Positions 26,006-41,339 of a stretch of 64,000 bases of DNA are shown piece by piece. Each line of letters begins with the position of its first letter. Position 1 is the first letter of the stretch. Origin of the DNA: an uncultured Candidatus Competibacteraceae bacterium (GTDB lineage: Bacteria; Pseudomonadota; Gammaproteobacteria; Competibacterales; Competibacteraceae); contig CAIRMO010000055.1 of assembly GCA_903879705.1 (NCBI GenBank), positions 1 through 64,000 on the forward strand, read 5' to 3'. Under the pieces are notes generated by a model, which did no database searches, was not told the origin of the DNA, and was given only the letters and a program-made list of their open reading frames with translations. Position numbers and translations under genes: made by a program.

Positions 26006-26040
26006 TCAGGATGAAAATAAGAAACAGGGCGTTCACTTTC

Positions 26041-26112: not shown

Positions 26113-26126
26113 AAAAAGGCAGGCCA

Positions 26127-26645
26127 GTGAAAGTTCTGAGAAACTCAGAAATGATTAACTTAATGTGGACGGGACAGCAGACTTTGACAGGACGGTCGCA
26201 ACGCGGTTTTACCCTGCTGGAAATGCTGGTGGCCCTGGTGATTGGCGTCTTGCTGGTCACGCTGGTTCCGCCGCTGCTGTCCGGGCTGAGCGGCGGAACT
26301 GAGTTGCGCAGTGCAGCGCGGCAACTGGCCGCTGGTTTGCGCAGCGCCCGCAACCAGGCCGTCTCCCGCCAGCAGGAAGCCGTGCTGACGCTCGATCTGG
26401 CCCAGCGCCGGTTTGGTGTCAGCGGCGACCCCCGTATCGTCGCTTTGCCGGACAGCGTGGCGGTTAAGCTCTTCACCGCCCAGTCGGAACTGCTGGATCA
26501 AACCACCGGCAATATCCGCTTCTTCCCGGACGGCAGCTCTACTGGCGGCGCAATCACCGTCAGCGGTCCGAAGCTCGCCTACCGGGTGAATATCGACTGG
26601 TTAACCGGAGCCGTTGCCATCGTCGAACAGGATGTTCAGCCATGA
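26127..26645 (+). CDS. gspH: Type II secretion minor pseudopilin GspH (cluster 2)
   Basis: Minor pseudopilin of up to 172 residues with cleavage motif G-FTLLEMLVALVIGVLLVTL and Glu5. The GspH/FimT pattern RSAARQLAAGLRSARNQAVS follows the helix, and RRFGVSGDPRIVALPDSV matches the globular domain. The GTG at 26127 gives a leader of 27 residues. ATG 26151 or ATG 26163 would shorten it, and I cannot decide between them. It overlaps gspI by 4 bp. Confidence 0.88.
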   Translation: MKVLRNSEMINLMWTGQQTLTGRSQRGFTLLEMLVALVIGVLLVTLVPPLLSGLSGGTELRSAARQLAAGLRSARNQAVSRQQEAVLTLDLAQRRFGVSGDPRIVALPDSVAVKLFTAQSELLDQTTGNIRFFPDGSSTGGAITVSGPKLAYRVNIDWLTGAVAIVEQDVQP

Positions 26646-27058
26646 TCCTCTGCCGTCGCCAACGCGGCTTTTCCCTGCTGGAAGTGCTGGTCGCTTTCGC
26701 CATCCTCAGCGTCTCGCTGGGCGTATTGCTGCAAGTATTCGCGACCGGCTTGCGCAATGTGGGCTTGTCCGATGATTACAGCCAGGCGACGCTCTACGCG
26801 CAATCCATTCTCGCCGCGATGGGCCGTGAAACACCGCTCAGCGAAGGCGTCCGCTCCGGGCCAGTCAATGATCGGCTGTCTTGGCGCAGTACGGTCAGCG
26901 CCTACGTCGAGGGGCTGCCGGATCCCGAAAAAAGCCGGGTTCGGGCCTATCGGGTCAGCGTCGAGGTGTACTGGCCGGGTCTGGTTCAGAACCGTTCAGT
27001 CACGCTGGAAACGCTGCGGCTGGCTGCGGTTGAGCCGCCGCAGGGAACGCCCCAGTGA
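26642..27058 (+). CDS. gspI: Type II secretion minor pseudopilin GspI (cluster 2)
   Basis: Minor pseudopilin of 138 residues, leader MILCRRQRG, cleavage motif G-FSLLEVLVAFAILSVSLGV with Glu5. The C-terminal domain is short, with a segment VEVYWPGLVQNRSVTLETLR. Starts inside the end of gspH (4 bp overlap) and overlaps gspJ by 4 bp. Order and size fit GspI; the WVALNQ motif seen in cluster 1 is not conserved here. Confidence 0.82.
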   Translation: MILCRRQRGFSLLEVLVAFAILSVSLGVLLQVFATGLRNVGLSDDYSQATLYAQSILAAMGRETPLSEGVRSGPVNDRLSWRSTVSAYVEGLPDPEKSRVRAYRVSVEVYWPGLVQNRSVTLETLRLAAVEPPQGTPQ

Positions 27059-27723
27059 ACGCGACATTCGGCTTCTCACCTCAGCGGCAGACGGGGTTTA
27101 CCCTGATCGAGCTGGTGATCGCCATGACCCTGATGGGGTTGACGCTGGTGGCGCTGTACAGCGGCCTGCGGCTGGGGTTGAACAGTTGGGATAGCGGCGA
27201 ACAACGCGCCGAGGCCGTCAACCACTTGCGCGCCGCCCAGGAGTTTCTGCGCCGCCAACTGGCGCAATCGATGACGGTCTACCAGACCAACGATCAACAG
27301 GAGCAAACCGTGGTATTCGTCGGCGGGCCAGACCGCATCGAGTTCATTGCGCCGATGCTGACCCATCTGGACCAGGGCGGCTTGTACCGGATTCGGGTTG
27401 AAACCGGAGACGGTCGGTTGTGGCTGCGCTGGCGGAAGTATGTGCGCGCTGATCCCGAAGCCGGCGAGCAGCAGGAAACCGTGCTGCTGAACAAGGTGTC
27501 GGCGGTGGAGTGGGCCTACTTCGGATCGGAGCCGGATGATCCGACGGGGCAAAAACCGCAGAATCCGCCGAGCTGGCGCTCCGAGTGGACGATAGCCGGG
27601 CAGCGGCCGTTGTTGGTGCGGCTAAATCTGAATCTGGGCGGCCAGCCGTGGCCGGATTTGGTGGCGTCCCTGGTTGAAGGACCACAACGGTCGTCCTTGG
27701 GCGTCACAGTACAAGGACTTTGA
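27055..27723 (+). CDS. gspJ: Type II secretion minor pseudopilin GspJ (cluster 2)
   Basis: Minor pseudopilin of 222 residues. The leader is about 16 residues, then G-FTLIELVIAMTLMGLTLVA with Glu5. After the helix comes RAAQEFLRRQLAQSM, typical of GspJ-like proteins of this T2SS subtype. It overlaps gspI by 4 bp and ends 8 bp before the preferred gspK start. By position and size it is GspJ. The globular domain is divergent from the cluster 1 protein. Confidence 0.85.
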   Translation: MNATFGFSPQRQTGFTLIELVIAMTLMGLTLVALYSGLRLGLNSWDSGEQRAEAVNHLRAAQEFLRRQLAQSMTVYQTNDQQEQTVVFVGGPDRIEFIAPMLTHLDQGGLYRIRVETGDGRLWLRWRKYVRADPEAGEQQETVLLNKVSAVEWAYFGSEPDDPTGQKPQNPPSWRSEWTIAGQRPLLVRLNLNLGGQPWPDLVASLVEGPQRSSLGVTVQGL

Positions 27724-27731
27724 GGAAGAAC

Positions 27732-28616
27732 GTGGGACTTCGTCGACCGCGAGCTGATCAACCCGGCATGGCGCTGGTGATCGTGCTGTGGATGACCGCC
27801 CTGCTGGCCGTCATGGCCGGCAGCTTTGCCTATTCCATGCGGATCGAAACCCGGCTGGCGGTCAGCATGGTGGAGCGGGTGCAGGCCCAGGAATTAGCCG
27901 AGGCCGGAGTGGCCTATGCGCTGGCTTGGCAACTGGATCCGGAGGCCCGGAAACAATGGCCGCCAAACGGCGATGAGCGCGTCTGGTCATTTGGCGTTGG
28001 ACAATTGCGGATTCAGGTCGTAGACGCCAGCGGCCTGATCAATCTCAATACCGCTGACGCCGAGTTGCTCAAGAAATTGCTGACGGCGGCGGGCGTGGCG
28101 AGCGGGGATCAGGATCGGCTGGCGGAGGCCATCCTGGAGCAGCGCAACCCGGATGAACGACAACGGTTAGGGGCAAAACCATCCGCCGCAGGTTTTAGCC
28201 CCCGGTTGCGCCCGGCCGGGTTTGAAAGTATTGAGGATTTGCAGCAGGTTCCGGGCATGACCCCGGCGATTTACGCCCGGATCGCCAGCCTGATGACCGT
28301 ATTTTCCCAGCATCGCGGTGTTAATCCGGGGCTGGCACCGGCCCGGGTGCTGCTGGCGCTGGGGATGGACGAACGGGCGGTCGCTGATTATGTCCAAAGC
28401 CGCGCCCGCGCCGCGGCGGACGGATTGCCGCCGCCGCCCGTGGCCATCGATCAAGGTCAATTCGTTTCCTTTCAGATGAACGCGAATGTTTATCATGTCC
28501 GGGTCATTGCAGAGACGGCGACTGGCGCAACCGCGCTGGTGGAAGCGGTTATCGATAACCAAAGGACGAACCTCGGTAAACTGCCACGCGGGTTGATGTG
28601 GCGCGATGGACGCTGA
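27732..28616 (+). CDS. gspK: Type II secretion minor pseudopilin GspK (cluster 2)
   Basis: Tip pseudopilin of about 294 residues. GTG 27732 is preferred: GAGG at 27722-27725 lies 6 bp upstream. TTG 27720 is an alternative. The hydrophobic segment GMALVIVLWMTALLAVMAG lacks Glu5, as expected for GspK. The helix-hairpin region INLNTADAELLKKLL and a second FESIEDLQQVPGMTP are the conserved GspK domains. Unlike cluster 1 GspK, it has no Pro/Lys-rich insertion. Confidence 0.88.
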   Translation: MGLRRPRADQPGMALVIVLWMTALLAVMAGSFAYSMRIETRLAVSMVERVQAQELAEAGVAYALAWQLDPEARKQWPPNGDERVWSFGVGQLRIQVVDASGLINLNTADAELLKKLLTAAGVASGDQDRLAEAILEQRNPDERQRLGAKPSAAGFSPRLRPAGFESIEDLQQVPGMTPAIYARIASLMTVFSQHRGVNPGLAPARVLLALGMDERAVADYVQSRARAAADGLPPPPVAIDQGQFVSFQMNANVYHVRVIAETATGATALVEAVIDNQRTNLGKLPRGLMWRDGR

Positions 28617-28648
28617 GGATCAAATGCCCGTTGTGGCCTGGAGGTGGA

Positions 28649-29755
28649 ATGTGCGCTCAGCAGGATTGTTCTGATATGGCGGCGATGCCGTTGGATTTGA
28701 AGATGAACCCGCGCCTGGATTGGCGCACGGCGTGGCGTTGGTGGCGGGAGGGTCTGCTGGCCTGGCTGCCGCGGCGGATGCACCGCTGGCTGGCGGGTTC
28801 GTCGCGGCGGCTGGTCATCCGGGTCGATGAGGGTGGCTATGCGCTGGTGCGTGAAGCCGCCGGGCAAGCGCCGCAGGAGTTGGATCGGCTGGATCGGTTA
28901 TCTCCGGACTGGAGCGGATTGGCCCGGCGGTTCAGAGCCGAGCAAACCCGCCAGTTGGTGTTGCGGGTTCCCGCTGACCACGCCCTGATTCGCACCCTGC
29001 CGCTACCCTTGGCTGCCGAGAAGAATCTGCGTCAGGTCATGGGGTTCGAGATGGACCGGTTGACGCCTTTTGCCGCCGCCCAGGTGTATTACGACGTGAT
29101 CGTGCTGGAGCGCCAAGTCGAGCAGCGCCGGTTGCGGGTCGAACTGACGGCGTTGCCGCGGACTGCCGTCGAGTCGGTGCTGGCCCAGTTACGGCAACAG
29201 GGTTTCTCGCCGGATGTGCTGGATGTGGCGGGCCGGCGACCCGAGTTAAACCTGTTGCCGCTGGAGCAACGCCCGCGCCGGGGAGTGTGGGCAAAACGGA
29301 TACGGACGATCGTGATCGCGGTCGCCGTGCTGCTGATCGGAGCCGCGGCGTTGTTACCGATCTGGCAGCAACGGCTGCTGGCGATAGAGGTCACGACCCG
29401 GATTGACCCGGTCCAGAAAGCGGCAAACCAAGCGCTGGTCTTGCGCGATCAGCTGGATCGCGCCCTGGAAGCCTCCAACATATTGTCCCATAAGAAACAA
29501 ACCCTTCCGCCGCAGGTGGATGTGTTGCGGGAACTGACCCTCATTTTACCAAATGACACCTGGCTGGAACGCTTGCAGATTAAGGGAGATAGCTTGCAGA
29601 TTATCGGCCAGTCCGCCAAGGCGTCGGCGCTGATCAGGCTCATCGAGGCTTCGCCACTGTTTAGCAGTGCGACCTTCATGTCGCCGGTGACGACTGATCC
29701 GCGCACCAACAAGGAACGGTTCGTGTTGGGTGCCCGGATCAGCAAGGAACCCTAA
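28649..29755 (+). CDS. gspL: GspL-like protein with PilN domain (cluster 2)
   Basis: About 368 residues from ATG 28649 (GGAGG at 28640-28644 just upstream). ATG 28676 and ATG 28703 are possible later starts. The N-terminal half resembles a GspL/PilM-type actin-like domain (RLVIRVDEGGYALV, then TLPLPLAAEKNLRQVMGFEM). A transmembrane helix follows at about residues 220-240 (TIVIAVAVLLIGAAALLP). The C-terminal part carries a PilN-like domain (DVLRELTLILPNDTWLERL). It overlaps the next gene by 1 bp. Position and layout say it replaces GspL in this system. Confidence 0.8.
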   Translation: MCAQQDCSDMAAMPLDLKMNPRLDWRTAWRWWREGLLAWLPRRMHRWLAGSSRRLVIRVDEGGYALVREAAGQAPQELDRLDRLSPDWSGLARRFRAEQTRQLVLRVPADHALIRTLPLPLAAEKNLRQVMGFEMDRLTPFAAAQVYYDVIVLERQVEQRRLRVELTALPRTAVESVLAQLRQQGFSPDVLDVAGRRPELNLLPLEQRPRRGVWAKRIRTIVIAVAVLLIGAAALLPIWQQRLLAIEVTTRIDPVQKAANQALVLRDQLDRALEASNILSHKKQTLPPQVDVLRELTLILPNDTWLERLQIKGDSLQIIGQSAKASALIRLIEASPLFSSATFMSPVTTDPRTNKERFVLGARISKEP

Positions 29756-30357
29756 TGGTCGCTGTAGCTGAATCGGGTTGGGGGCAACGACTGACGGCGC
29801 TGATGCTGCTGGCGCTCTTGGTGGGTGGTGTGCTGTATCTGGTGGTCGATCAGGGCCTGTTGGCCCGCTATCGCCACTATCGGGAATTTCTGGAACAACA
29901 GCAAGCCCGGCTGCAACAGGTAAACCGAATCGCCGCGAGCCGCGATCCGATTCAGCAACTGATGACTAAAATCGGCCAGGATCAGGGCATTACCGCCCAA
30001 TATCTGCCACAGTCCGCGCCAGCGCTGGCGGCGGCCGAATTGCAGCAGCGCATCCGGTCGGTGGTCGAGGCCGCGGGCGGAACCCTGCGCAGCACTCAGG
30101 CCTTGCCGCCGGTCGAGGAAGGCCATACGGTGAAAGTAGCCGTCAGCGTTACGCTGACCGGCGATACCGATAATCTGCAAAAAATTCTTTACGATCTGGA
30201 GGGACAGACACCCTTGTTATTTGTGGATAATCTGGAAGTCTCGGCGCGGGAGAACCGCCAGCGCCTGCCGGGCGGCCGAATGGCGACCTACACGCGCATC
30301 CAGTTGAGTGTCCAGTTCGAGGTTTACGGTTATCTGCGCAAGAAGGAGGGTGGCTAG
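29755..30357 (+). CDS. gspM: GspM-like protein, subtype b (cluster 2)
   Basis: A 200-residue bitopic protein: one transmembrane helix at about residues 10-30, a coiled region rich in Gln/Arg, and a C-terminal ferredoxin-like fold region (HTVKVAVSVTLTGDTDNLQ, ILYDLEGQTPLLFVDNLEV). This fits the GspM 'subtype b'/PilO-like family rather than the classical GspM of cluster 1. It follows the GspL-like gene with 1 bp overlap and touches the next gene. It probably pairs with the GspL-like protein. Confidence 0.82.
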   Translation: MVAVAESGWGQRLTALMLLALLVGGVLYLVVDQGLLARYRHYREFLEQQQARLQQVNRIAASRDPIQQLMTKIGQDQGITAQYLPQSAPALAAAELQQRIRSVVEAAGGTLRSTQALPPVEEGHTVKVAVSVTLTGDTDNLQKILYDLEGQTPLLFVDNLEVSARENRQRLPGGRMATYTRIQLSVQFEVYGYLRKKEGG

Positions 30358-30984
30358 TTGACGGCCCGGACGGCAGGTCTGCTGCTATGGCTGCTGATTG
30401 GCGGGTTGGCAAGCAGCGCGGTGTTCTGGCAACTGAAGCACCCGCCACAGCCGCCGGTCCTGCCCGCTGCAACGGGTGCGCGGCCACCAGAGTTGCCGGC
30501 GCTGACTCCCGTGAAACCCTTTCGGCTGCCGCCGCCAGCGCGTTATGCCAGCATTACTGCCCGCCCGGTGTTTATCGCGGCCCGCCAGCCCGAACCGCCG
30601 CCGCCCCCCGATGAAATTACGCCGCCGCAACCTCTTCCGGCCAGTCCAGAACCGACGCCGCCAACCCTGATGGGGGTGATGATTATGCCGCAGGGGCAGG
30701 TGGCGCTATTGCGGCCCGAAGAACCGAACGCCAAAACGGCGCGGGCCAAGGTGGGCGATAGGGTCGGAGAATGGCTGCTTGAGGCGATTTTTCCCAACCG
30801 GGTGGTGTTGAGCAAGGGGTCGGTGAAACAAGAACTGGCGCTGGTTCGAACCAAAAAGCCGGTCGGATCGAGTACCGGGAAACGAAATGGCCCCAGGCCA
30901 GCACCGGTTGCTGCCCCGCCAGACGCGCTGCTGCAACCCGTTCCACCACCGCTGTTCACTGTCCCCGGTCTGCCGCAACAATGA
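30358..30984 (+). CDS. GspC/GspN-like periplasmic homology-region protein (cluster 2)
   Basis: A 208-residue protein with a TTG start directly after the gspM stop. It has one N-terminal transmembrane helix (about residues 5-25) and a long Pro-rich linker. A domain at about residues 95-160 (LMGVMIMPQGQVALL, KVGDRVGEWLLEAIFPNRVV) resembles the HR domain of GspC, which binds the secretin N0 domain. The tail after residue 165 is again Pro-rich. It is often annotated GspN in such clusters. I think it takes the GspC role, bridging the inner-membrane platform and GspD; this is inference from domain order. Confidence 0.65.
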   Translation: MTARTAGLLLWLLIGGLASSAVFWQLKHPPQPPVLPAATGARPPELPALTPVKPFRLPPPARYASITARPVFIAARQPEPPPPPDEITPPQPLPASPEPTPPTLMGVMIMPQGQVALLRPEEPNAKTARAKVGDRVGEWLLEAIFPNRVVLSKGSVKQELALVRTKKPVGSSTGKRNGPRPAPVAAPPDALLQPVPPPLFTVPGLPQQ

Positions 30985-31006
30985 ATGCAACAAGGCTCGC
31001 TATTTT

Positions 31007-33337
31007 ATGAACAAGATGCTGTCCCTGTCCGCCGCTGGTATGGCCTTAGCGGTATTGCTGAGCGCGTGTGCAACGCCGCCGCCCTCCGAAGAAACTATCC
31101 AGCAAACCACGCCCGTCAGTGCTTCGCCGGTCGCTGGATCGCTGCGCCTGACGGCAAAGCCCCTATCGGCTACCGACCGATCCGGGGCCAGTGCGGAGGT
31201 GAAAGAAGCGTCCAGAACCACAACTATTCTGCCGGGGACTGGCGATTTCATCGACCTGAAAGCTGCCGTCAAGCCGTCTCCGACCCGGATCAAGGCCACG
31301 CCGGGTGAAGTCACTCTCAACTTTGAGGGCGCTGATATCCGTGACGTTGCCAAGGTGGTATTCGACACCCTCAAGGAAAACTACACGGTTGACCCGCTGG
31401 TGCAGGGCGAGGTCACGGTGCAAACCAGCCAGCCGTTGACGCCCAATCAGTTATTGCCAACCTTGGAAACCCTGCTGCGGATGAACAATGCGGTGCTGGT
31501 ACACGAGGGCAATCTGTACAAGATTCTGCCGGGGGCCGGCGCGGTCAAGCAGGGCAACCTGACGCCGCGATTGGGCAGCTCCGGCGGTGGTTACAGTGTG
31601 CGAATTGTGCCGCTGCGCTATATCAGCGCCACCGAAATGCAGTCGATCATCGCGCCGTTGCTGCCGGATGGGGCGGTGCTGCGCGCCGATGTTGCCCGCA
31701 ACCTGCTGATGTTGGCCGGTACGCCACAGGAGCTGGCCAACATTCAGACCACCATCGACACCTTTGATGTGAACTGGCTCAAGGGCATGTCGGTCGGGAT
31801 GTTCCGGCTGCGCAATATCGACAGCCAGGCGATGGCGACCAACCTGAACCAGGTGCTGGGTGAAGGCTCCGGGACGCCCATCGCTGGTTTGCTCCGGTTT
31901 GTGCCGCTTAGCAAAATGAATGCGGTGCTGGTGATTACCCCACAGAAAGAATACCTGCGAGAGGTTGCGGTCTGGATCGAGCGGCTGGACGGGGTTGGCG
32001 GCGAGCGGCTGTATGTCTATCACGTCCAGAACAGCCGGGCTGAATACCTTGCCGATTTGCTGAATGGTCTATTTAACTTGGGCAGTGGCGGCAGCAGCGG
32101 GCGCGGCGGCGAAGTGGCGCCGGGCTTAAAACCGGCTGAGGCGTCCAGCGGTATGTCTTCTGGCGGAGGTCTCTCCTCTGGCGGAGGTGTGTCCTCGAGC
32201 GGTGGCTTGTCCTCTGGCGGAGGTGCGTCCCCGGGTGGTTCCTCATCATCCGCTGGTTCCTCTTCTGCTTCGGGCAGTCGTTCCAGCAGTCGGGCTGGCG
32301 CCGCTACGGCAGGCAGCAGCGGCGGCGGCGGGCCGAGCGCCGGGATGGAGGAAGTCCGGATCGTCGCTGATATTGAAAACAACGCGCTGTTGATTTGGGC
32401 GACCAACCAGAACCATGAGCGGATTGTCAGCACCCTGGAAAAAATGGATGTCCCCCCCCGGCAGGTGCTGATTGAAGCGACGATCGCCGAGGTGACCCTG
32501 ACCGGCAAATTGTCGTATGGTGTGCAATGGTATTTCAATAACGATCTGGGTCAGGACTATACGGGAAACGGATTTTTCGGCCTCACCAGTGGCAACACCC
32601 CATTGAACGGAACAACAACGACCGATGGCAAAGTGACCACAGTGACCAAAGGATTGGCGATTGCGGCTGACAAGTTTACCTACGTCATCACTGGCGGTAA
32701 TACCGTGAAGGCGTTGCTCAGCGCGCTGGCCAGCGATGGCAAGGTCAGGGTCTTGTCAGCGCCGCATGTGATGGCGCTGGACAGCCAACAGGCGCAGATC
32801 CGGGTGGGTACTCAACAACCGACTCCATCCGGCACTTCCACCGTGAACAATGTGACCACCAGCGGTGGAGTCACTTACAAGGATACCGGGGTGTTTCTGA
32901 AGGTATTGCCCCGAATCAATTCCGGGGGCATGGTCAACATGGACATCTTGCAGGAGGTGATCGATGTGGGGCCGCTGGTGGATGTGAGTTCCGGTTCCGT
33001 GAGTTCCTCCGGGGAGTCGGTGGCGCTGAAACAGCGCGCCTATTTACAGCGGAGCGTAAACAGCAAGGTGGCGGTGAGGAGCGGCCAGACCGTGGTGCTG
33101 GGCGGTCTCATCCGCGATAACCGCGCTGAGGGTGAGAGCGGTGTGCCGGTGTTGTACAAGATTCCGGTGCTGGGGGCGCTGTTCGGCAATACTGCAGAGG
33201 AGGTAGAACGTACCGAACTGATCGTCTTGATCACGCCCCGGGTGGTGGAGGATAGCCAAGAGGCCGCGCAGGTCACTGATGAGATCAAGCGCAAGATGCA
33301 GGGATTGGCGCCGATGCTGCCGCCGCCAGCGGGTTGA
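31007..33337 (+). CDS. gspD: Type II secretion secretin GspD (cluster 2)
   Basis: Outer-membrane secretin, 776 residues from ATG 31007. The start gives a lipoprotein signal peptide ending LLSAC-ATPP. N0/N1-N3 domains are visible (GEVTLNFEGADIRDVAKVVF, VTVQTSQPLTPNQLLPTLE, VRIVPLRYISATEMQ). They are followed by the secretin core (RVLSAPHVMALDSQQAQIRV, VVLGGLIRDNRAEGESGVPV, TELIVLITPRVV). A Ser/Gly-rich linker at about residues 365-445 contains an 18-bp tandem repeat, here within N3. The lipobox may allow self-piloting without a pilotin. A GT41 gene follows after 24 bp. Confidence 0.95.
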   Translation: MNKMLSLSAAGMALAVLLSACATPPPSEETIQQTTPVSASPVAGSLRLTAKPLSATDRSGASAEVKEASRTTTILPGTGDFIDLKAAVKPSPTRIKATPGEVTLNFEGADIRDVAKVVFDTLKENYTVDPLVQGEVTVQTSQPLTPNQLLPTLETLLRMNNAVLVHEGNLYKILPGAGAVKQGNLTPRLGSSGGGYSVRIVPLRYISATEMQSIIAPLLPDGAVLRADVARNLLMLAGTPQELANIQTTIDTFDVNWLKGMSVGMFRLRNIDSQAMATNLNQVLGEGSGTPIAGLLRFVPLSKMNAVLVITPQKEYLREVAVWIERLDGVGGERLYVYHVQNSRAEYLADLLNGLFNLGSGGSSGRGGEVAPGLKPAEASSGMSSGGGLSSGGGVSSSGGLSSGGGASPGGSSSSAGSSSASGSRSSSRAGAATAGSSGGGGPSAGMEEVRIVADIENNALLIWATNQNHERIVSTLEKMDVPPRQVLIEATIAEVTLTGKLSYGVQWYFNNDLGQDYTGNGFFGLTSGNTPLNGTTTTDGKVTTVTKGLAIAADKFTYVITGGNTVKALLSALASDGKVRVLSAPHVMALDSQQAQIRVGTQQPTPSGTSTVNNVTTSGGVTYKDTGVFLKVLPRINSGGMVNMDILQEVIDVGPLVDVSSGSVSSSGESVALKQRAYLQRSVNSKVAVRSGQTVVLGGLIRDNRAEGESGVPVLYKIPVLGALFGNTAEEVERTELIVLITPRVVEDSQEAAQVTDEIKRKMQGLAPMLPPPAG
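32156..32227 (+). repeat. 18-bp tandem repeat encoding SSGGGx in gspD
   Basis: Four tandem 18-bp units (32156-32173, 32174-32191, 32192-32209, 32210-32227), three of them differing from TCCTCTGGCGGAGGT plus three variable bases by at most one base. They encode SSGGGL, SSGGGV, SSSGGL and SSGGGA. The repeat is the core of a longer Ser/Gly-rich linker (to about 32340). The unit is a multiple of three, so changes in copy number would keep the reading frame. Confidence 0.85.
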
Positions 33338-33361: not shown

Positions 33362-35572
33362 ATGCAACCAGAAGCACAAGCCGCACTGCGCCGGGTGTGG
33401 TTGAAGCAGGAACAAGCCCGCTTTCAACAGCGCAGCCAGAATCACCCTGACGATGCCCAGGTCTGGCGGCAATTGGCGCGGAACTGCTGGGAATTGGACG
33501 AAATTGAGCCGGCTTTGGCGGCGCTTGACCGGGTTTTGACGCTGCAACCCGACGATGGTGAGGGGTTATTAGGCCGGATCGTCACCTGTCTGGCGCTTAA
33601 TCGGAATGAGGAGGCGCTGGCGGCAGCGCTGCGGTTATTGAGGTTATTTCCCGACCACGTCGATGCGCGCTTGCAGCAGATTGAGGCGCTGCGCCGATTG
33701 GGGCGGTCAGCCGAGGCGCTGACGGTTGGTGACGAGCTACTGGCGTTGCCCGGCCTCGCTCCGGCAACGCGGTGTTCAGCGCTTACAGTCAAGGTGGTGC
33801 TGCTGGGCGGTTTTAACCAGAACGAGAAGGCCTTGGCGGTTGCCAAGGAAGGACTGGCGTTAGTGCCGAATGATCCGATGCTGGGCTTGCATCGCGCTAC
33901 GCTACAGGCGCGGCTGGGGCAATTCCCCGAAGCGCTGGCGGGAATTGACGCGCTGATCGCCGCGCCGGAAACCCGGTTTGGTGCGTTGTGCGTCAAGGCC
34001 CGGGCGCTGGCGGCGTTGCGGCGGTTTGATGAAGCCGATGCGATCCTGGTTGATCTCCAGGAACATTCTCCGCATCCGTCACTGGAGGCGATGTTCGAAC
34101 CCCGGCGGTTGCCGGGCGAGACCTTGCCGGACAGTTTGCCCAAGCGCTACACGGCACGCGGGTTATATCTGATCGATTTTTTCAATGCCCGCGCCAACTG
34201 CGACTGGAGCGAGTGGGCGGCGGTGCTGGCAAATATCGATGATTTGACCGCTGACGCCTTGCGCTATGGCTTCGTGGCGGGGATCGAACCGTTTAGTTTA
34301 TTGACCCTGCCGATTACGCCCGCCCGGCAAGCGGCAGTAGCACGCGCCCAGGCTACAGCGGTGGCGGCGCACATGGCGCCGATCCGGGAAACTCTGCACA
34401 TCGAATGGCCGACGGTGCTGAATCATGGCCGGTTACGGATTGGCTATGTCTCCGGCGATTTTCGCAATCACGCCACTGCGCACTTGGCCCGCAAGCTGTT
34501 TCGGACCCATGACCGAAGCCGGTTTGAGATTGTTGGGTTCAGTCTGCGTCCTGATGATGGCAGCGAATATCGGCGCGATAGTGCTGCGGGTTGCGACCGG
34601 TTTGTGGAACTGTTTGGGCTGAGCAACGCGGAAGCGGCGGTGCGCATTACCCAGGAGGAAATTCACATTCTGGTGGATATGCACGGCTACACCCGGTTTG
34701 CCCGGCCAGAGATTTTTGCGTTGCAGCCCGCACCCGTGCAAGTCAGTTTCCTCGGCTATCCGGGTACGCTCGGCGCGGCCTGTGTGCCGTATATCATCGC
34801 CGACCAGGTGGTGCTGCCGGACGAGTTGCGGCCCTGGTTCAGTGAGCAGCCGGTTTATCTGCCGGATTGTTATCAGGTGAACGACGATGAACAACCCATA
34901 GCGGCAACCGGCGTCACCCGGGCCGAGGTCGGGTTGCCGGAAAATCAGTTCGTTTTTTGCTGCTTCAACCATTTCCGGAAGATTGATCCGGAAACTTTTA
35001 GGGTGTGGATGCGGATTCTGGATCAGGTTCCAGGCAGCGTTCTTTGGTTGCAGGCCGACAGTGTGCAGGGCATGGATCGGTTGCGCCGGGAGGCAGGGGC
35101 GCGTGGTGTGGATCCAGCGCGGCTCATGTTTGCGCCGTACCTGCCTAAAGCGCTGCACCTGGAACGGCTGCGGCTGGCGGACCTGTTTTTGGATACTTTC
35201 GTTTATAACGCCCATACAACAGCCAGCGATGCGCTGTGGGTAGATCTGCCGATCGTGACGTTGCGCGGCGGATCTTTTCAGTCGCGGGTTTGCGCAAGTC
35301 TGTTAGGCACACTGGGATTGCCGGAGCTGATTACCGATCACAGCGCGGCGTTCGAGGTATTGGCGGTGGCCTTAGCGCATGATCCGGAGCGATTGCAGGG
35401 GTTGCGGGCGCGATTGCGGGCGCGGCGGTTGATGGAGCCGCTGTTTGATACGGCGCGTTTCGTTCGGGGCTTGGAGCGGTCGTTCTGGTTGCTGTGGGAT
35501 TGCTATCATGCGAACCGGCAACCTGAACCGCTTTATCTTCAAAAGGATAGCGATTTTGGCCCGGTCGTTTGA
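33362..35572 (+). CDS. GT41 family (O-GlcNAc-transferase-like) glycosyltransferase with TPR repeats
   Basis: A 736-residue protein. Residues 1 to about 240 are tetratricopeptide repeats (for example QNHPDDAQVWRQLARNCWEL, LAALDRVLTLQPDDGEGLLG). The C-terminal half is a GT41/SPINDLY catalytic domain. Its signatures include RIGYVSGDFRNHATAHL, DMHGYTRFARPEIFALQPAPV, QVSFLGYPGTLGA, FVFCCFNHFRKIDPETF and YNAHTTASDALWVDLPIVTL. Eukaryotic OGT transfers GlcNAc to Ser/Thr of proteins, and some bacterial members modify adhesins or flagellins. It starts 24 bp after gspD and is the last gene of cluster 2. No signal peptide, so it acts in the cytoplasm. Acceptor and sugar donor are unknown. Confidence 0.9.
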   Translation: MQPEAQAALRRVWLKQEQARFQQRSQNHPDDAQVWRQLARNCWELDEIEPALAALDRVLTLQPDDGEGLLGRIVTCLALNRNEEALAAALRLLRLFPDHVDARLQQIEALRRLGRSAEALTVGDELLALPGLAPATRCSALTVKVVLLGGFNQNEKALAVAKEGLALVPNDPMLGLHRATLQARLGQFPEALAGIDALIAAPETRFGALCVKARALAALRRFDEADAILVDLQEHSPHPSLEAMFEPRRLPGETLPDSLPKRYTARGLYLIDFFNARANCDWSEWAAVLANIDDLTADALRYGFVAGIEPFSLLTLPITPARQAAVARAQATAVAAHMAPIRETLHIEWPTVLNHGRLRIGYVSGDFRNHATAHLARKLFRTHDRSRFEIVGFSLRPDDGSEYRRDSAAGCDRFVELFGLSNAEAAVRITQEEIHILVDMHGYTRFARPEIFALQPAPVQVSFLGYPGTLGAACVPYIIADQVVLPDELRPWFSEQPVYLPDCYQVNDDEQPIAATGVTRAEVGLPENQFVFCCFNHFRKIDPETFRVWMRILDQVPGSVLWLQADSVQGMDRLRREAGARGVDPARLMFAPYLPKALHLERLRLADLFLDTFVYNAHTTASDALWVDLPIVTLRGGSFQSRVCASLLGTLGLPELITDHSAAFEVLAVALAHDPERLQGLRARLRARRLMEPLFDTARFVRGLERSFWLLWDCYHANRQPEPLYLQKDSDFGPVV

Positions 35573-35771
35573 AACCCGCTATCGGGTGTGGCGGTGATTT
35601 TATGCAGGTTTGTTGCTTTTATGAAACTACGGCGCGGCTTCTCGATGTGGTTATTCAGAATGTCCGGATTAGGCTTAACATTCGGAATTGCCGTTACTTA
35701 TGCCGGCGTGGTTTTCAAAGGTGGATTCTTTGTTCGCGGTAGCGAAGGATCAATTTTGTTGGGTTGCTGTA

Positions 35772-35799
35772 TTGACAACAACACTTTGTTGTGTAGAAT
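35772..35799 (+). promoter_or_regulatory. Sigma-70-type promoter with internal palindrome
   Basis: TTGACA (35772-35777), 16 bp, TAGAAT (35794-35799). Between the boxes lies a perfect inverted repeat, ACAACA-CTT-TGTTGT (35778-35792), which is placed like a repressor operator. It would drive the secreted-protein gene at 35923 with a leader of about 115 nt. The rest of the 350-bp gap 35573-35922 holds no convincing gene. Confidence 0.6.
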
Positions 35800-35922
35800 C
35801 CACAGACAGTGAGGCGTGCCACCGTATAGACGGGCAAGTGCTTAACCGCTAAACTGTTCGCCAATGTGGTTCGGAAACCCTCTTCAAGGTTTGTTTTTTG
35901 CCAACACTTAGGAGCTGATGCT

Positions 35923-37389
35923 ATGAGTTTTAAGGTGAACAAAATTGCGGCCGCTGTGGCTGTGAGTCTGGGGACTTCGGTTGTGGGCATGAATGTCGCG
36001 CAAGCCGATGCGGTGTTTTTCCCGTACTTGATCGCATCGCCTGCGGTTACGACCATTTTGTCGGTCGTCAATGAGGGACCGACAAATAGCAAGCTCCACT
36101 ATCGGTACTACTACAAGGAGGATGCCGGCAGTGCCGAGGCGAATCGTCTTTCTGGATGCACGGAAGCCGATTACCCCAACTGGACGAGCCCTAATGATGT
36201 CGTGACCTTTGATATCAGCAATGTTTTCGGGGCTCCTCGCAATGGTGTACTGTTTGAGGGGGCTACTGGCGGAAACTACGATGATTTCGCGATCTTCCGT
36301 CACAAGACAATCCGTGCCAATGCCGTTGTTGACAATGACTTTTCGGGCTTTAGCTTCGCGAAGAATGTCAACGGCGAGGCGTTCATCATCGAATTCGCGA
36401 GCGGTTCTGTCTGGGGTTATTCAGCTTATAATGCGGCTGAAATCCTGACGTACACTGGTGCCTACGTCGGTGCACCGGCGGATGCTCTGAAGTCCGTAAA
36501 TCCCGTGAATGAATTCGATTTCTCGGACCGTGTCGAGGTGAACGGTGAGGTGTTGGTAGCGGCACCAACTAACGAGAGTAAAGCGAATATAATCGAAAGG
36601 TATCGGGTGCCGATTACGATCATGCCATTCAAGGAGGTTACAACGCGCCTGTTCGTAACGCCGATTAACCCCAACAAGCCTTTCCAGGTGCCGACTGAAA
36701 AGAATCTCTATACGGCGGGTATCCGCTTGGAAGTAAACGACAACACCAGTCTGCAACAGGTGATGTTTGATCGTGACGAGAACCCGGTCTCTGGTCGGGT
36801 CACCAAGCAGGTTGTCTGCGTAGGTGCGGTTGATGTGCCTGAGTTGATCAATGAGGCCATTCGTTCGCGGGTAGCGAATGGCGGGTGGAGTAATGTTGGC
36901 ATTATTTTGGGTGGCCTTCCTGCTCCCGCTGTCGCTGTTAACCAGGCGATTGTCCTCAAGCTGGAATATGGTGTCGCGGTTCCACCGGCAACAGAAGCAG
37001 CGCTGGATGGCGTCCTTGTTGGTTCCGGTAGTTATAACAACGGCTACTGGTTGCGTAAGGGCATTCGCGAATCCGTGCCGCGCAACTTTATGATAGCTGG
37101 TTTTGGTAGTTATCCGGTACTCCCGGTATTCCTGATGCCTGAAGCGGCCCAGGACGTTAATGCGCCTTACCCGGTGATCAGCACACAGGGGGTGGATGCC
37201 TATAATGCTACTGTGGCTCTTGAAGCGCGGTTGCCATCAGGGATCAGCTACCAGGATTACGTTCCCTATTCATGGAATACTTCGTATGAGTATTACCTAG
37301 CGAATGTGGCGAATATAGCTGCTGGGCGTCACCCTGTATATGAACCCTTTAATGTCGTTGAACAGGCGTTGAAGTCAATAGCGCAGTAA
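35923..37389 (+). CDS. Secreted protein of unknown function
   Basis: A 488-residue protein. ATG 35923 is chosen because it follows TAGGAG and opens a Sec signal peptide (MSFKVNKIAAAVAVSLGTSV ... NVAQA-DAVFFPYL, cleavage near residue 28). The mature part is beta-rich with few cysteines (one in SGCTEADYP, one in VVCVGAV), suggesting one disulfide. No catalytic motif or membrane anchor is visible. I do not recognise the family. It is monocistronic: a strong promoter upstream and a clear terminator downstream, suggesting high expression. Lying after a T2SS cluster, it could be a secretion substrate or an outer-surface protein; this is inference. Confidence 0.85.
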   Translation: MSFKVNKIAAAVAVSLGTSVVGMNVAQADAVFFPYLIASPAVTTILSVVNEGPTNSKLHYRYYYKEDAGSAEANRLSGCTEADYPNWTSPNDVVTFDISNVFGAPRNGVLFEGATGGNYDDFAIFRHKTIRANAVVDNDFSGFSFAKNVNGEAFIIEFASGSVWGYSAYNAAEILTYTGAYVGAPADALKSVNPVNEFDFSDRVEVNGEVLVAAPTNESKANIIERYRVPITIMPFKEVTTRLFVTPINPNKPFQVPTEKNLYTAGIRLEVNDNTSLQQVMFDRDENPVSGRVTKQVVCVGAVDVPELINEAIRSRVANGGWSNVGIILGGLPAPAVAVNQAIVLKLEYGVAVPPATEAALDGVLVGSGSYNNGYWLRKGIRESVPRNFMIAGFGSYPVLPVFLMPEAAQDVNAPYPVISTQGVDAYNATVALEARLPSGISYQDYVPYSWNTSYEYYLANVANIAAGRHPVYEPFNVVEQALKSIAQ

Positions 37390-37413
37390 ATTAGCGCGGC
37401 CTAGGCCGGGCGG

Positions 37414-37440
37414 AAGGGCCACCTTGGGTGGCCCTTTTTT
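37414..37440 (+). terminator. Rho-independent terminator
   Basis: GGGCCACC (37416-37423), loop TTG, GGTGGCCC (37427-37434), followed by TTTTTT (37435-37440). It lies 26 bp after the stop of the secreted-protein gene and is the clearest intrinsic terminator in the window. Confidence 0.92.
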
Positions 37441-37581: not shown

Positions 37582-39351
37582 ATGACAAAATTTTTCCTCA
37601 CACTAGCGAGTGTGCTGCTGGCGGCAATTGCGCAGGCGGACGATCGTTTGAATCCCGTGGTGTTAAACCAGCACGTCCTGGACCAGTACGCGACTTGGGA
37701 TTTTGCGCTGTCTGAAAGTGGCAAACCCTGGTTTGCCTATTATGGCGTGGATAATCTGTTGTATGTGCGTCGACCGGATGGCACCGAGGTCGCGCTGGGC
37801 GCTACTGATCGGTCACGCCAGCAATCCGGGTTGGCCATAGCGCCAGTCGATGAGCGCTTGAGCCTATTCTGGCGGGACAAGCTGCCTCGTAAAAATCTGT
37901 ATTTGCTGCCCAAACTTGATCCCACCGGAGTTGCGCCGCCACCGGTCGTGGTTGGCAGTGAAGAATCCGAGCCGCTGGTCCGGATGAATCTGGCCCAAGG
38001 TGGTGGCGTCGATTACCTGCTTTGGATGGGTGAGAAGGGCGATCCAAAAAGCGGGGAGAAATACCATATTTACTTCCGCACGGTTGATCAGGACGGTAAG
38101 GCGCTATCGCCGGTGGAACAAGTCATGCCCGGCATCTACCCCGCCTGGATTGTTGCGCCGGATGTAATCCCGGTGTTTTCCTGGATGATGTACGAAGACA
38201 AGCCGGCAATGACCATGCGAGTCTTTGATCGCGCCAAAAAGAGTTTTAGCCCACTGGTGAAGATCGCCGATGCGCCTACGATTAGTCCGATTTTCGAGGC
38301 GTTTAAATCGGGCGACCGCTGGTTCCTGTTGTGGTTGGGCCATTATGGCGATAAAGGGGAACTGTTGCTGGAAGGCACCTACTCGGACGATAAAGGCCAG
38401 ACCTGGAAGCGATTCGCCATCGAGGATCTGCGTGGCCTGGATATGGGCAGCGTCAGCATCGTTAGCGACCAAAAGACTAACCTTATCATTGCGCTGTATG
38501 GCAATCGGCAGTTGATGGACCCCACTAACACCACTAACATCAAGAACAATGTCTATGTGGTGCGATCCACCGACAACGGTACGACCTGGCAGAAACCGCA
38601 GACAGTGCGTTCCGACGAACTCCGCTTGACCAAGGCGCAATATCCGGTGCTGGCGCTCGGTTCACAACCAGGGACTGTAATGCTGGCTTGGGAAGACTGG
38701 CGTGATATCCGTCCCAACGTCTATGTGAGTTATTCCAAGGACTATGGGGCAACGTGGGAACCGGCATTGCCGTTGGGTCGGCCTGGAGTTTGGAACCTGG
38801 GTCTGGATTTGCAGCCCCATTCGATGATTGGACGGGAGGACCGTTTCTCACTGATCGCCAAGCAATATAAGGACGACGCGCTGTCGGCAAATAAGGATTA
38901 CGTTCTGTATAGTTTTACTTGGGATGAAGTCAAGCGGAATGCTGCGGAATTCAAGATTTCGGAACTCCAGCGGGCGCACGCCACCGAGGCCCGGTTGCGC
39001 GAACGGGCGACGCAATACTGGCAAGCCATGCAGGATGGTCAGTACGAGATGACTTACGCCATCATGGACCCGTTCTACCGCAGTCAGCGCGATCTTAAAG
39101 CCCACCTTTCCAGCAAGGGCCGGGTGAAATATCATCGCTTTCAGGTCGGTCCGATTGTCCAGAAAGGCAATCTTGCCCGGGTTCAGATCGAAATAGAAAC
39201 TTCGGTTCCCGAGTTCAAACTGCCGGACGGCAAGATCATCAGTCAACCGGCTAAAACCGTATCATTCCTGCAAACATGGGTCTTCCTGAATGATGACTGG
39301 CATCTTGAATATTACGATGAGATGGCCGAAAAGAGTTCTACCAGTTACTAA
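37582..39351 (+). CDS. Secreted sialidase-like beta-propeller protein with Asp-boxes
   Basis: A 589-residue protein with a signal peptide (MTKFFLTLASVLLAAIAQA-DD). Three Asp-box motifs, SDDKGQTW (268), STDNGTTW (329) and SKDYGATW (385), mark a BNR/sialidase-type propeller. The catalytic arginine triad of true sialidases cannot be confirmed. After about residue 470, a separate domain (ERATQYWQAMQDGQYEMTYA) resembles an NTF2-like or SnoaL-like fold. It lies 24 bp before an ABC exporter permease gene, probably in one operon, so it may process or bind the exported polysaccharide. Exact activity is unknown. Confidence 0.75.
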   Translation: MTKFFLTLASVLLAAIAQADDRLNPVVLNQHVLDQYATWDFALSESGKPWFAYYGVDNLLYVRRPDGTEVALGATDRSRQQSGLAIAPVDERLSLFWRDKLPRKNLYLLPKLDPTGVAPPPVVVGSEESEPLVRMNLAQGGGVDYLLWMGEKGDPKSGEKYHIYFRTVDQDGKALSPVEQVMPGIYPAWIVAPDVIPVFSWMMYEDKPAMTMRVFDRAKKSFSPLVKIADAPTISPIFEAFKSGDRWFLLWLGHYGDKGELLLEGTYSDDKGQTWKRFAIEDLRGLDMGSVSIVSDQKTNLIIALYGNRQLMDPTNTTNIKNNVYVVRSTDNGTTWQKPQTVRSDELRLTKAQYPVLALGSQPGTVMLAWEDWRDIRPNVYVSYSKDYGATWEPALPLGRPGVWNLGLDLQPHSMIGREDRFSLIAKQYKDDALSANKDYVLYSFTWDEVKRNAAEFKISELQRAHATEARLRERATQYWQAMQDGQYEMTYAIMDPFYRSQRDLKAHLSSKGRVKYHRFQVGPIVQKGNLARVQIEIETSVPEFKLPDGKIISQPAKTVSFLQTWVFLNDDWHLEYYDEMAEKSSTSY

Positions 39352-39375: not shown

Positions 39376-40176
39376 ATGAAACCGATCTACCGGTTACCTG
39401 GTGCGTTGCGGCTATTCCCGCCCTTCGTAGGGCGGGAATTGCGTGAGCAATACGCCGGTTCTGTTTTGGGGGTGCTGTGGAGCGTTCTGCAACCGGTCTT
39501 GTTGATTCTTTTGTATTGGTGGGTATTCGCCACCGTCATGCAAATCCGGTTTCCAGCAAATTCTGCGCTGGCGGATACGCCATTCATCGTGTTTCTGCTA
39601 TCGACCTTGTTGCCGTGGTTCGCTTTTCAGGACAGTCTGAGCCGCGCCACGGGTGCTATTCTCAACCGGCGTGACATGGTCCGTAAGGTTCACTTTCCCG
39701 CACAGGTATTTCCCTTGGCAGCGGCGGCGGCGGCTTTTATGGTTCATTCGGGCTGTTACTTGCTGTTTCTGGTCGCTTTCGCCCTGTGGCACGGTGGGTT
39801 ACCGGTCAGTGCATGGGGGGCGGTGATCGTGTTGCTGGGCTTCCAGTTTGCCGTAACTGCCGGGTTGGGATTGCTGTTAGCGTCCTTCACTGTTTATCTG
39901 CGCGATATCCAGCAGGTGTTGAGTTTACTGCTGGCGGTCATTTTCTACACCGCGCCAATACTCTACCCGTTGTCGCAAGTACCGGCAGAATTTCACAGTC
40001 TGATTCATTTCAACCCGTTTACCATCTTCGCCGAGGCCTATCATGGTGCGGTATTAGCCGGTGTCTGGCCAGAACCGGCGGTATTGGCAGGACTGATGCT
40101 GTTTGCCATTGGTTCGCTCGTTGCAGGCGTTTATGCCTTTCGGCGGCTAGAACCGGGTTTCGCTGATGTGTTATGA
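39376..40176 (+). CDS. wzm: Polysaccharide ABC exporter, permease (Wzm-like)
   Basis: A 266-residue ABC-2 type membrane protein with six hydrophobic segments. The N-terminal motif FVGRELREQYAGSVLGVLW and the block DSLSRATGAILNRRDMVRKV are typical of O-antigen/capsule export permeases (Wzm/TagG/KpsM-like). It pairs with the ATPase gene that overlaps it by 4 bp (ATGA). The substrate is a polysaccharide assembled on undecaprenyl phosphate in the cytoplasm and flipped across the inner membrane. Confidence 0.92.
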   Translation: MKPIYRLPGALRLFPPFVGRELREQYAGSVLGVLWSVLQPVLLILLYWWVFATVMQIRFPANSALADTPFIVFLLSTLLPWFAFQDSLSRATGAILNRRDMVRKVHFPAQVFPLAAAAAAFMVHSGCYLLFLVAFALWHGGLPVSAWGAVIVLLGFQFAVTAGLGLLLASFTVYLRDIQQVLSLLLAVIFYTAPILYPLSQVPAEFHSLIHFNPFTIFAEAYHGAVLAGVWPEPAVLAGLMLFAIGSLVAGVYAFRRLEPGFADVL

Positions 40177-41339
40177 ATGAAATCAAACCGGCCCTAAGGG
40201 TCAGCGGACTGACCAAAATCTACCGCTTATATAATCACCCCATGGATCGCTTAAAAGAATTATTGTGTCGACAGCCACGCCATAGCGATTTTGTAGCGTT
40301 GCGCGACATTACTTTTGAATTGCCGCACGGACGAACGCTGGGCATCATCGGTGACAATGGCGCTGGTAAAAGTACGCTGCTGCAACTGGTCGCCGGAACG
40401 ATGACGCCTACTTGTGGGACCATTGAGCGTGATGGCGTGGTATTGGGCCTGTTGGAGTTGGGCGTTGGCTTTCACGCTGAATTCACTGGCCGGCAAAATA
40501 TCTTTCTGTATGGCGACGTTCTCGGCTTATCGCGCCGGTTAATACAAGCCGGTGTAGACGAGATCATTGCTTTTGCCGAATTGGAAGCTTTTATTGATCA
40601 GCCGCTGAAAACCTATTCCACGGGTATGCGGATGCGGTTAGCCTTTTCGTTAATCACTACGCTGGATCCGGATGTTCTGATCGTCGACGAAGCATTGTCC
40701 GTCGGCGACGTGTATTTCCAGAAGAAGTGTATTGACCGGATGCTGGAATTCAGAAATCGCGGTCGCACAATTATTTTCTGCTCCCATAGTCTTTATCAAG
40801 TCAGCGTTTTTTGTGATGAGACGATTTGGTTGCAGGCCGGCCAGATCCGGATGTACGGCGAAACCCTTCAGGTTATTCCTGCCTACGAGGCTTGGCAGGC
40901 TCAGCGCAGTGTCCAGCATGATCAGGCTGATGCTGGAGTAAACCGGGAAATTTTAGTACGCATTATCAGTATTGAGTTGCTGAATCAACAGCCTTGTTGG
41001 CGCGGAGATGACCTGCGTTTCCGGTTGCACATTGAAAGCGCCAGTTCTGATTTGCTCTTTCATGTTTCTTTTTCAATCAAGATGCAAAATGGTTACGGAG
41101 TATTTGCGACCGGTACGCATCTCATTGGTCATCCGCCATTGCAGGGTCGAGAACGTGACATACTGATTACCTATCCAAAAGTTCCGTTGATGGGAGGCAT
41201 CTATAGTGCACATGCTCGTATTTTTGATGATCAGGGCTTGATGATTTATCACGAAAAAATCCTAAATGAATTTGAAGTGAGAAAGGACTCATTGGAGTTG
41301 GGTGTTTGTCATCTGGAAAATGATTGGCAAATTGAATAA
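40173..41339 (+). CDS. wzt: Polysaccharide ABC exporter, ATPase with C-terminal binding domain (Wzt-like)
   Basis: ATP-binding subunit of 388 residues. Walker A GDNGAGKSTLL is at residues 55-65. The family-specific signature YSTGMRMRLAFSL (about 149-161) replaces LSGGQ, and LDPDVLIVDEALSVGDVYF is Walker B. Residues after about 245 form an extra domain as in Wzt, which recognises the terminal modification of its polysaccharide. The gene becomes AT-richer toward its 3' end and is followed by a 600-bp AT-rich stretch with broken coding sequence. Confidence 0.93.
   Translation: MNEIKPALRVSGLTKIYRLYNHPMDRLKELLCRQPRHSDFVALRDITFELPHGRTLGIIGDNGAGKSTLLQLVAGTMTPTCGTIERDGVVLGLLELGVGFHAEFTGRQNIFLYGDVLGLSRRLIQAGVDEIIAFAELEAFIDQPLKTYSTGMRMRLAFSLITTLDPDVLIVDEALSVGDVYFQKKCIDRMLEFRNRGRTIIFCSHSLYQVSVFCDETIWLQAGQIRMYGETLQVIPAYEAWQAQRSVQHDQADAGVNREILVRIISIELLNQQPCWRGDDLRFRLHIESASSDLLFHVSFSIKMQNGYGVFATGTHLIGHPPLQGRERDILITYPKVPLMGGIYSAHARIFDDQGLMIYHEKILNEFEVRKDSLELGVCHLENDWQIE

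What the first reader, a model, noticed from the sequence alone, without database searches (positions are those of the whole stretch)
35772..37440. Unknown secreted protein under a strong, apparently repressible promoter
The gene has a near-consensus promoter (TTGACA-16-TAGAAT), a perfect palindrome between the boxes, a Sec signal peptide, an about 115-nt leader and an intrinsic terminator. Such a well-isolated, probably highly expressed single gene, lying between a T2SS and a polysaccharide region, is notable because the protein belongs to no family I recognise.
Basis: partly seen in the sequence, partly recalled or inferred. Interest (0 to 1): 0.5.

Follow-up and report, generated by a model that had tools for sequence, protein, structure and literature searches.

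The report
Swappable secreted-protein cassette beside T2SS
A secreted-type protein of no curated family, from relatives of wastewater and purple sulfur bacteria, sits with a partner protein and sugar-handling genes in an exchangeable slot beside a protein-export machine, under a promoter kept almost letter for letter within its bacterial family; it may be a sugar-binding surface or matrix protein.

Summary
TTGACA-16-TAGAAT with dyad ACAACA-CTT-TGTTGT lies at 35772-35799, before an ATG at 35923 (488 aa). In 9 of 9 family homologues with upstream sequence, 31 of 37 columns are invariant. Outside the family the block decays and the dyad is broken. High expression gains no support from codon usage; 'repressible' is unproven.

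The protein has no curated family. Predicted structures suggest two tandem beta-sandwiches: domain 1 matches TM1070/ASRT (Z 11.0); domain 2 has the same top hits, but weakly (Z 6.8). ASRT-type domains are predicted sugar binders.

The gene is one form of a slot just after a type II secretion operon, with a secreted-type beta-propeller, a GT41 glycosyltransferase and a polysaccharide exporter. Of 39 family genomes, 10 carry this form and 18 a distant alternative with another propeller; none has both. Form changes 8 times on the best T2SS tree of 20 rows.

Best reading: a T2SS-linked, glycan-associated exoprotein whose cassette is exchanged like a serotype locus. Secretion, sugar binding and the regulator are inferred.

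The parts
35768..35804 (+). conserved promoter/operator block: TTGACA (35772-35777), dyad ACAACA-CTT-TGTTGT (35778-35792), TAGAAT (35794-35799), CCACA
   Evidence: consensus; 31 of 37 columns invariant in 9 family loci; found in exactly the 9 family genomes that have the gene with upstream sequence
35806..35922 (+). predicted leader, about 117 nt; AGGAG at 35910-35914
   Evidence: inferred start; no unusual RNA structure (z +1.07); ribosome-site stretch conserved in 5 long-leader homologues
35923..37389 (+). gene 'FPY' (name used here): secreted-type protein, 488 aa, signal peptide residues 1-28 by reading
36007..36450 (+). domain 1 (residues 29-176), beta-sandwich of TM1070/ASRT type in the model
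   Evidence: model; 1nc7 Z 11.0, rmsd 2.2, 106 of 116 aligned
36538..37056 (+). domain 2 (residues 206-378), beta-sandwich in the model, same top hits at lower Z
   Evidence: model of residues 205-385, pLDDT 78.9; 1nc7 Z 6.8, rmsd 2.8, 104 aligned
37075..37386 (+). variable C-terminal tail, low model confidence
37412..37438 (+). intrinsic terminator
   Evidence: a terminator-like hairpin after 10 of 10 family homologues
37582..39351 (+). secreted-type BNR/Asp-box beta-propeller partner
   Evidence: Pfam BNR 29.7 bits, cut-off 27; downstream neighbour in 22 of 24 family loci
33362..35572 (+). TPR + Glyco_transf_41 (OGT/HMW1C-type, recalled) glycosyltransferase
   Evidence: PF13844 E 1.3e-102; upstream in 14 of 24 loci, in L026 with a gene between
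22498..33337 (+). type II secretion operon gspE-F-G-H-I-J-K-L-M-C-D
   Evidence: Pfam T2SSF and Secretin; other names by reading and synteny
39376..41339 (+). ABC-2 polysaccharide exporter pair (Wzm/Wzt-like; name by reading)
   Evidence: relatives of the first in 11 and of the second in 10 of 24 loci

Best explanation
The gene makes a secreted protein of two tandem TM1070/ASRT-like beta-sandwiches (predicted). It is the exoprotein of an exchangeable cassette just after a T2SS operon in Competibacteraceae. Proposed course: it is exported by Sec (signal, by reading) and then by the adjacent T2SS (inferred); outside the cell it and the secreted-type beta-propeller partner bind or organise the polysaccharide made and exported by the neighbouring glycosyltransferases and ABC transporter, possibly after modification by GT41 (inferred). 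Its own promoter and terminator uncouple its dose from its neighbours (inferred from conserved sites), and a DNA-binding protein that recognises the CAACA-N3-TGTTG dyad controls it (site conservation shown within the family; protein and sign of control unknown). The cassette is replaced by an alternative one (other sandwich-like protein, FG-GAP propeller) much as a serotype locus is (replacement shown by comparison; the selective reason inferred).
For: Fold: domain 1 Z 11.0 to 1nc7, the five top rows all TM1070/ASRT, next row 5.1; domain 2 alone again has 1nc7 and ASRT entries in ranks 1-4, with carbohydrate-binding modules tied from rank 5. The ASRAH paper predicts sugar binding, and extracellular forms in dyads linked to a glycosyltransferase (PMC2739507). 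Context: BNR next door in 22 of 24 loci across Competibacteraceae, Chromatiaceae, Halothiobacillus and Nitrospirae MAGs; GT41 upstream in 14 of 24. Exchange: 10 and 18 of 39 genomes, overlap 0 (5.5e-4 if genomes were independent); the T2SS tree needs 8 changes of form, shuffled mean 9.4; window against same-genus G001: GspD 88%, then no FPY or BNR hit in the stretch fetched. T2SS link: gspD on the same contig in 26 of 28 carriers, the other two contigs beginning at the gene; no gspD orthologue found in 8 of 11 non-carriers. Regulation. Surface role: the same domain ends a 2,600-aa DUF11/CshA/SdrD_B adhesin-like protein.
Against: No sequence-profile match to ASRT (no ASRT hit in Pfam; hhalign none against a two-row ASRT profile) and none between domains 1 and 2. 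Foldseek itself gave nothing at E <= 1e-3. The published ASRT Trp is F in 23 of 24 members, and the ligand His/Cys are not seen. Domain 2's Z of 6.8 and the ASRT entries' 7.1-7.4 are in the range common for unrelated models. Two genomes (G012, G019) have the T2SS but a GT2-like gene after gspD. T2SS genes were found upstream in only 11 of 24 loci. Several of the 8 genomes without gspD are incomplete. The dyad is broken or absent outside the family. Secretion route, glycan binding and glycosylation were not tested.
Confidence: 0.45

Rival explanations
1. It is a structural matrix or S-layer-like exoprotein: abundant, self-assembling, exchanged because phages or grazers see it, with no sugar binding of its own.
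For: Single-gene unit with its own promoter and terminator; secreted-type; exchangeable cassette; fused to an adhesin-like repeat protein in L020.
Against: Codon usage is not that of a very abundant protein (rank 31 of 36; weak test). The company of glycosyltransferases, a polysaccharide exporter and a propeller points to a glycan link.
Confidence: 0.25
2. FPY and the BNR propeller form a secreted enzyme pair: the propeller is a glycosidase or lyase and FPY its carbohydrate-binding subunit, used to remodel or digest external glycans.
For: BNR/Asp-box propeller above the Pfam cut-off; adjacency in 22 of 24 loci; domain 2's lower hits include carbohydrate-binding modules.
Against: In the alternative cassettes the gene after the exoprotein encodes an FG-GAP propeller (17 of 18 genomes), which argues for a binding rather than a catalytic role; the active-site residues of the BNR protein were not examined.
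Confidence: 0.13
3. The T2SS link is only positional: the protein is a Sec-exported periplasmic protein in a recombining polysaccharide locus that happens to abut gspD.
For: The similarity break lies right after gspD; T2SS genes were found upstream in only 11 of 24 loci, flanks and contig ends limiting the view.
Against: Both alternative forms keep the same place; 8 of 11 non-carriers show no orthologous gspD, though loss of the whole locus could explain both.
Confidence: 0.17

Closest known systems
ASRT / TM1070, the ASRAH superfamily (PF07100; De Souza et al. 2009, PMC2739507)
   Same: Beta-sandwich of the same arrangement by structural alignment of models; Asn at the end of strand 2 in 21 of 24 members by position; two domains and glycosyltransferase neighbours, as in the extracellular actinobacterial form described in the paper
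   Different: No detectable sequence-profile match; F instead of Trp at strand 1 in 23 of 24; no His/Cys ligand pair seen; T2SS context, propeller partner, no lipobox seen
Serotype-type surface loci (O-antigen, capsule; recalled)
   Same: Conserved flank with allele-like replacement of surface genes, types scattered over the host tree
   Different: The exchanged part includes a secreted protein with its own promoter, next to a T2SS operon
GT41-linked surface proteins such as HMW1C/HMW1 (recalled)
   Same: GT41 gene beside a secreted surface-type protein
   Different: No two-partner secretion pair was noticed here (not searched for); glycosylation untested
T2SS exoproteins (recalled as a class)
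   Same: Sec-type signal, gene beside gspD or one gene away
   Different: Not a known exoenzyme family in the libraries searched; secretion untested

Membership tests
ASRT/ASRAH (PF07100) | TM1070-type beta-sandwich, domain 1 | tested here: met
   Z 11.0, rmsd 2.2, 106 of 116 residues, on a predicted model
ASRT/ASRAH (PF07100) | TM1070-type beta-sandwich, domain 2 | tested here: inconclusive
   Same top hits but Z 6.8, rmsd 2.8
ASRT/ASRAH (PF07100) | sequence-profile similarity | tested here: not met
   24 members in Pfam: no ASRT hit; three unrelated families hit one member each at E 0.004-0.018. hhalign against only two ASRT rows: no match
ASRT/ASRAH (PF07100) | Trp at the start of strand 1 | tested here: not met
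   F in 23, W in 1 (L023) of 24 at position 33; equivalence by position
ASRT/ASRAH (PF07100) | Asn at the end of strand 2 | tested here: met
   N50 ends strand 42-50 of the model; N in 21 and D in 3 of 24; equivalence by position, not by a printed superposition
ASRT/ASRAH (PF07100) | sugar or small-molecule binding | not testable with these tools
   needs binding assays
T2SS exoprotein | Sec signal peptide | tested here: inconclusive
   by reading, A-Q-A/D at 28/29, and a like N-terminus in most aligned members; no predictor was available
T2SS exoprotein | release depends on the T2SS | not testable with these tools
   only co-location and co-occurrence
Exchangeable surface locus | alternative forms in one place, scattered on the host tree | tested here: met
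   0 overlap in 39 genomes; 8 changes on the best tree of 20, starred branches alone forcing 5 for form A; break after gspD

The most novel reading that the evidence does not exclude
Competibacteraceae carry a serotype-like slot fixed to a T2SS operon, in which whole exoprotein cassettes (tandem sandwich protein, secreted propeller, glycan genes and the exoprotein's own promoter) are exchanged, while one trans-acting regulator that reads TGTTG half-sites governs every form; the exoprotein family is a new kind of secreted glycan-binding protein that shapes the cell's matrix.
Probability: 0.3. Interest if true: 0.75.

Novelty: new variant of a known kind. Interest (0 to 1): 0.55.

Why it matters
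The named family relatives are Candidatus Competibacteraceae MAGs and Contendobacter, and a cited title ties a Competibacter to a structural granule polysaccharide (reference list of PMC12019908, title only seen). If the reading is right, the locus names a candidate matrix protein, its likely exporter and partner, and explains variation of surfaces between close genomes. It also gives a DNA bait of 37 bases for finding the regulator. Three PMC searches aimed at a T2SS in this group or a T2SS with GT41 held no paper; a fourth listed three general genome papers that I did not open.

Tried and rejected
Single-protein scan of genome contigs: 9 pattern matches, none a relative; the alignment scan then gave 23 loci. 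Class-wide search with A1: 3 of 369 genomes, two besides the own one; L038 (G110) reads as a distant homologue with a BNR-like gene after it, L039 (E 0.008) does not. Rfam on the window at gathering scores: 0. Leader RNA structure: none. Dyad ACARCA-N3-TGTTGT in five genomes: three sites other than this promoter were looked at, two inside ORFs and one between genes without a like promoter by reading; no regulon was found. The 9-base inverted repeat 35721-35729/35795-35803 lacks its upstream arm in the other 8 loci. High expression by codon usage: not supported. ASRT homology by sequence: not supported. Internal duplication by profile: not supported (score 3.7; shuffled columns reach 9.5). Foldseek alone: best E 5.6e-3; its top rows, mostly virus capsids, have TM-scores near 0.1 and were disregarded. 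PDB sequences with the profile: one hit at E 0.46, disregarded.

Rows left out: from the tree, L120 for a missing GspK, and L019, L024, L112, L121, L127, L128, L130, whose stretches lack the genes used; G033 lacks upstream sequence; further LPF matches in one genome were counted once. Three weak hits were moved from 'FPY' to 'LPF' after reading them.

Changed on checking: the type C promoter is now given as uncertain (two candidates), and the decay of the block outside the family is told. For these two facts the odds of the most novel reading went from 0.35 to 0.3.

Full report
1. Observation. The conserved start is ATG 35923, which gives 488 aa; the ORF list starts at GTG 35866. Comparison makes the promoter more than chance. 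In nine homologous family loci (L001-L009) 31 of 37 columns are invariant; the variable ones are one just before the -35, one at the spacer edge, the three dyad-centre bases and one -10 base. The loci came from protein search; the columns were anchored on the pattern, which all nine hold. Outside the block, ungapped identity falls to 34-40%, or 56-57% with gaps. With up to three mismatches the block occurs in 9 of 39 family genomes, once each, always before this gene; the reversed-pattern control is 0. The tenth carrier (G020) begins its contig inside the gene. A 25-base form adds one 3-mismatch site, in G011.

2. Limits of that conservation. Of 13 named loci outside the stand-alone family set, L021 and L026 (Thiorhodococcus) have the block with 4 mismatches, L028 and L029 (Thiocapsa) with 8 and 9 in the same layout (TTGACA, then GTGTARACT), and nine have nothing better than 10 mismatches in the 400 bases upstream. 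In the first four the right arm is not TGTTG; so the promoter is older than the dyad, or the dyad was lost. The fusion gene L020 has no block (13 mismatches).

3. The family. No match in Pfam or NCBIfam at E <= 1, none in PDB sequences with the protein. Ten of 59 relatives have it, all in one family. A profile scan gave 23 named loci: Candidatus Competibacteraceae including Contendobacter odensis, Chromatiaceae (Lamprobacter, Thiorhodococcus, Thiocapsa, Allochromatium), a Halothiobacillus MAG, Nitrospirae MAGs and less closely named MAGs. The window thus most likely comes from a Competibacteraceae genome (inferred). Two cysteines (C79, C299) are invariant in 24 members.

4. Fold. The AlphaFold2 model has pLDDT 67.6 and pTM 0.69, with a well-predicted core and a poor C-terminal tail. 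VIA-align 2, on the 967 chains that it aligned, puts TM1070 first for domain 1 (Z 11.0, rmsd 2.2, 106 of 116) and four ASRT entries next (7.1-7.4); the next row is 5.1. Domain 2, folded alone (pLDDT 78.9), has TM1070 first again (Z 6.8) and three ASRT entries in ranks 2-4 (5.0-5.4), tied with a carbohydrate-binding module at 5.0. The second result alone would not convince; the agreement of two separately tested domains is suggestive. Sequence profiles do not show the relation. I read parts 1 and 2 of 3 of the ASRAH paper (PMC2739507): it predicts sugar binding for these domains and describes extracellular dyads linked to a glycosyltransferase. The family here may work like that, but is not filed as a member.

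5. Neighbourhood. BNR is the next gene in 22 of 24 loci; the exceptions are a contig end (L015) and the fusion L020. GT41 lies upstream in 14 of 24, and a gspD relative upstream in 11 of 24; contig ends and the 10-kb flank limit these counts. In L020 the domain is the C-terminal part of a 2,600-aa protein with DUF11, CshA, SdrD_B and cadherin-like repeats.

6. The alternative form. Three weak hits of the profile proved to be a different secreted-type protein ('LPF', about 345 aa) right after gspD. A profile of three LPF proteins (A7) matches the FPY profile over 147 N-terminal columns, signal region included (hhalign probability 96.3, E 1.9e-9). A7 finds 18 of 39 family genomes at E <= 1e-3, some weakly (down to 3e-18 for the best hit); FPY is in 10; none has both. 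The chance of no overlap is 5.5e-4 if genomes were independent, which they are not. Both forms occur within genera g1, g8, g9 and g11. LPF follows gspD on the same contig in 17 of 17 genomes where that side is assembled; an FG-GAP propeller relative follows in 17 of 18, and a GT41 relative is near in 16 of 18, one of them weak. Of the 11 genomes with neither, 8 show no gspD orthologue (secretins of 30-36% identity, or none at E <= 1e-20; several are incomplete); G404 has gspD and GT41 up to its contig end, and G012 and G019 have gspD followed by a GT2-like gene.

7. Exchange. On a tree of GspK+L+M (20 rows) the three types (A, B, C) change 8 times, the least possible being 2; random labels average 9.4 and are as low in 42 of 200. 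Five of 17 inner branches are weak; starred branches alone force at least 5 changes for A, 5 for B and 3 for C. The window's nearest row is G001, of the other form. Their T2SS proteins are 88-95% identical for GspD, E, F, G, H and I and 62-84% for J, K, L, M and C; in the stretch fetched GT41 is then 44% and lies elsewhere, and no FPY, BNR, Wzm or Wzt is found, the stretch ending in GT41. Conversely, L018 has the lowest identity to the window among seven type A loci in GspH, I, J, L, M, C and D, but the highest in GT41 (62%, L014 61%), FPY (47%) and BNR (61%); Wzm and Wzt are not highest there. The cassette thus moves apart from the T2SS.

8. Regulation. Type A (FPY): dyad in the spacer. Type B (10 of 10 LPF loci with upstream sequence): ACAACA or GCAACA, six bases, TGTTGT, then TTGACA-17-TAGTCT or TAATCT. 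Type C (7 loci): TGTTGT-like repeats before TTGACTT-TACAGT; but all 7 also hold TTGACA-17-TATAGT or TATATT about 100 bases further up, so which promoter works is open. Counts of TGTTG/CAACA in 100 bases average 3.1, 4.0 and 3.6 in the three types, against 0.92, 0.62 and 0.97 in dinucleotide shuffles; windows 145-245 bases upstream hold 0-3. The windows were chosen after seeing the motif, and single loci of types A and C with only 2 are not unusual. A common regulator is possible, not shown; its sign cannot be told.

9. Expression. Codon adaptation is low (31st of 36 chosen ORFs), and G+C is 52% against about 60% for many window genes, which fits transfer as well as modest expression.

10. Literature. 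PMC12019908 was seen only in passages; they tell of unassigned secreted proteins in an Accumulibacter enrichment and do not mention this one. For the other papers only listings were seen; no listed title or abstract start names this locus. Searches held no paper.

Verdict. Real, conserved within its family, and more interesting than 'unknown single gene': a new secreted-type protein family in an exchangeable T2SS-linked cassette. The biochemical role stays inferred.

Noticed in passing
window 12601-16754: A second cluster that reads like minor T2SS genes (gspJ-, gspK-, gspL- and gspN-like) before the main T2SS operon.
   Followed up: no
L020 468-8267: A 2,600-aa DUF11/CshA/SdrD_B repeat protein ends in an FPY domain; its genome (G032) also has a stand-alone copy.
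   Followed up: partly
L032 9998-12141: Two FPY genes in tandem before the BNR gene in a Nitrospira MAG.
   Followed up: no
L100-L103 (G002, G014, G033, G025): Second, diverged LPF copies; in the two regions fetched (L122, 3.8 kb, and L123) no relative of the T2SS or cassette proteins was found beside them.
   Followed up: partly
window 35721-35729 and 35795-35803: 9-base perfect inverted repeat, one arm over the -10; the upstream arm is absent from the other 8 loci.
   Followed up: yes
LPF loci of type B, upstream region: Further half-sites (CTGTTGCGCAAACAACA) before the dyad are largely conserved in 10 loci.
   Followed up: partly
L026 and L021, upstream of the FPY gene: The Competibacteraceae promoter block reappears with 4 mismatches, keeping TTGACAACAACA but not the right arm of the dyad.
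   Followed up: partly
window 53086-55232: GDP-mannose dehydratase and GDP-fucose synthase-like genes (by reading) in the polysaccharide region.
   Followed up: no
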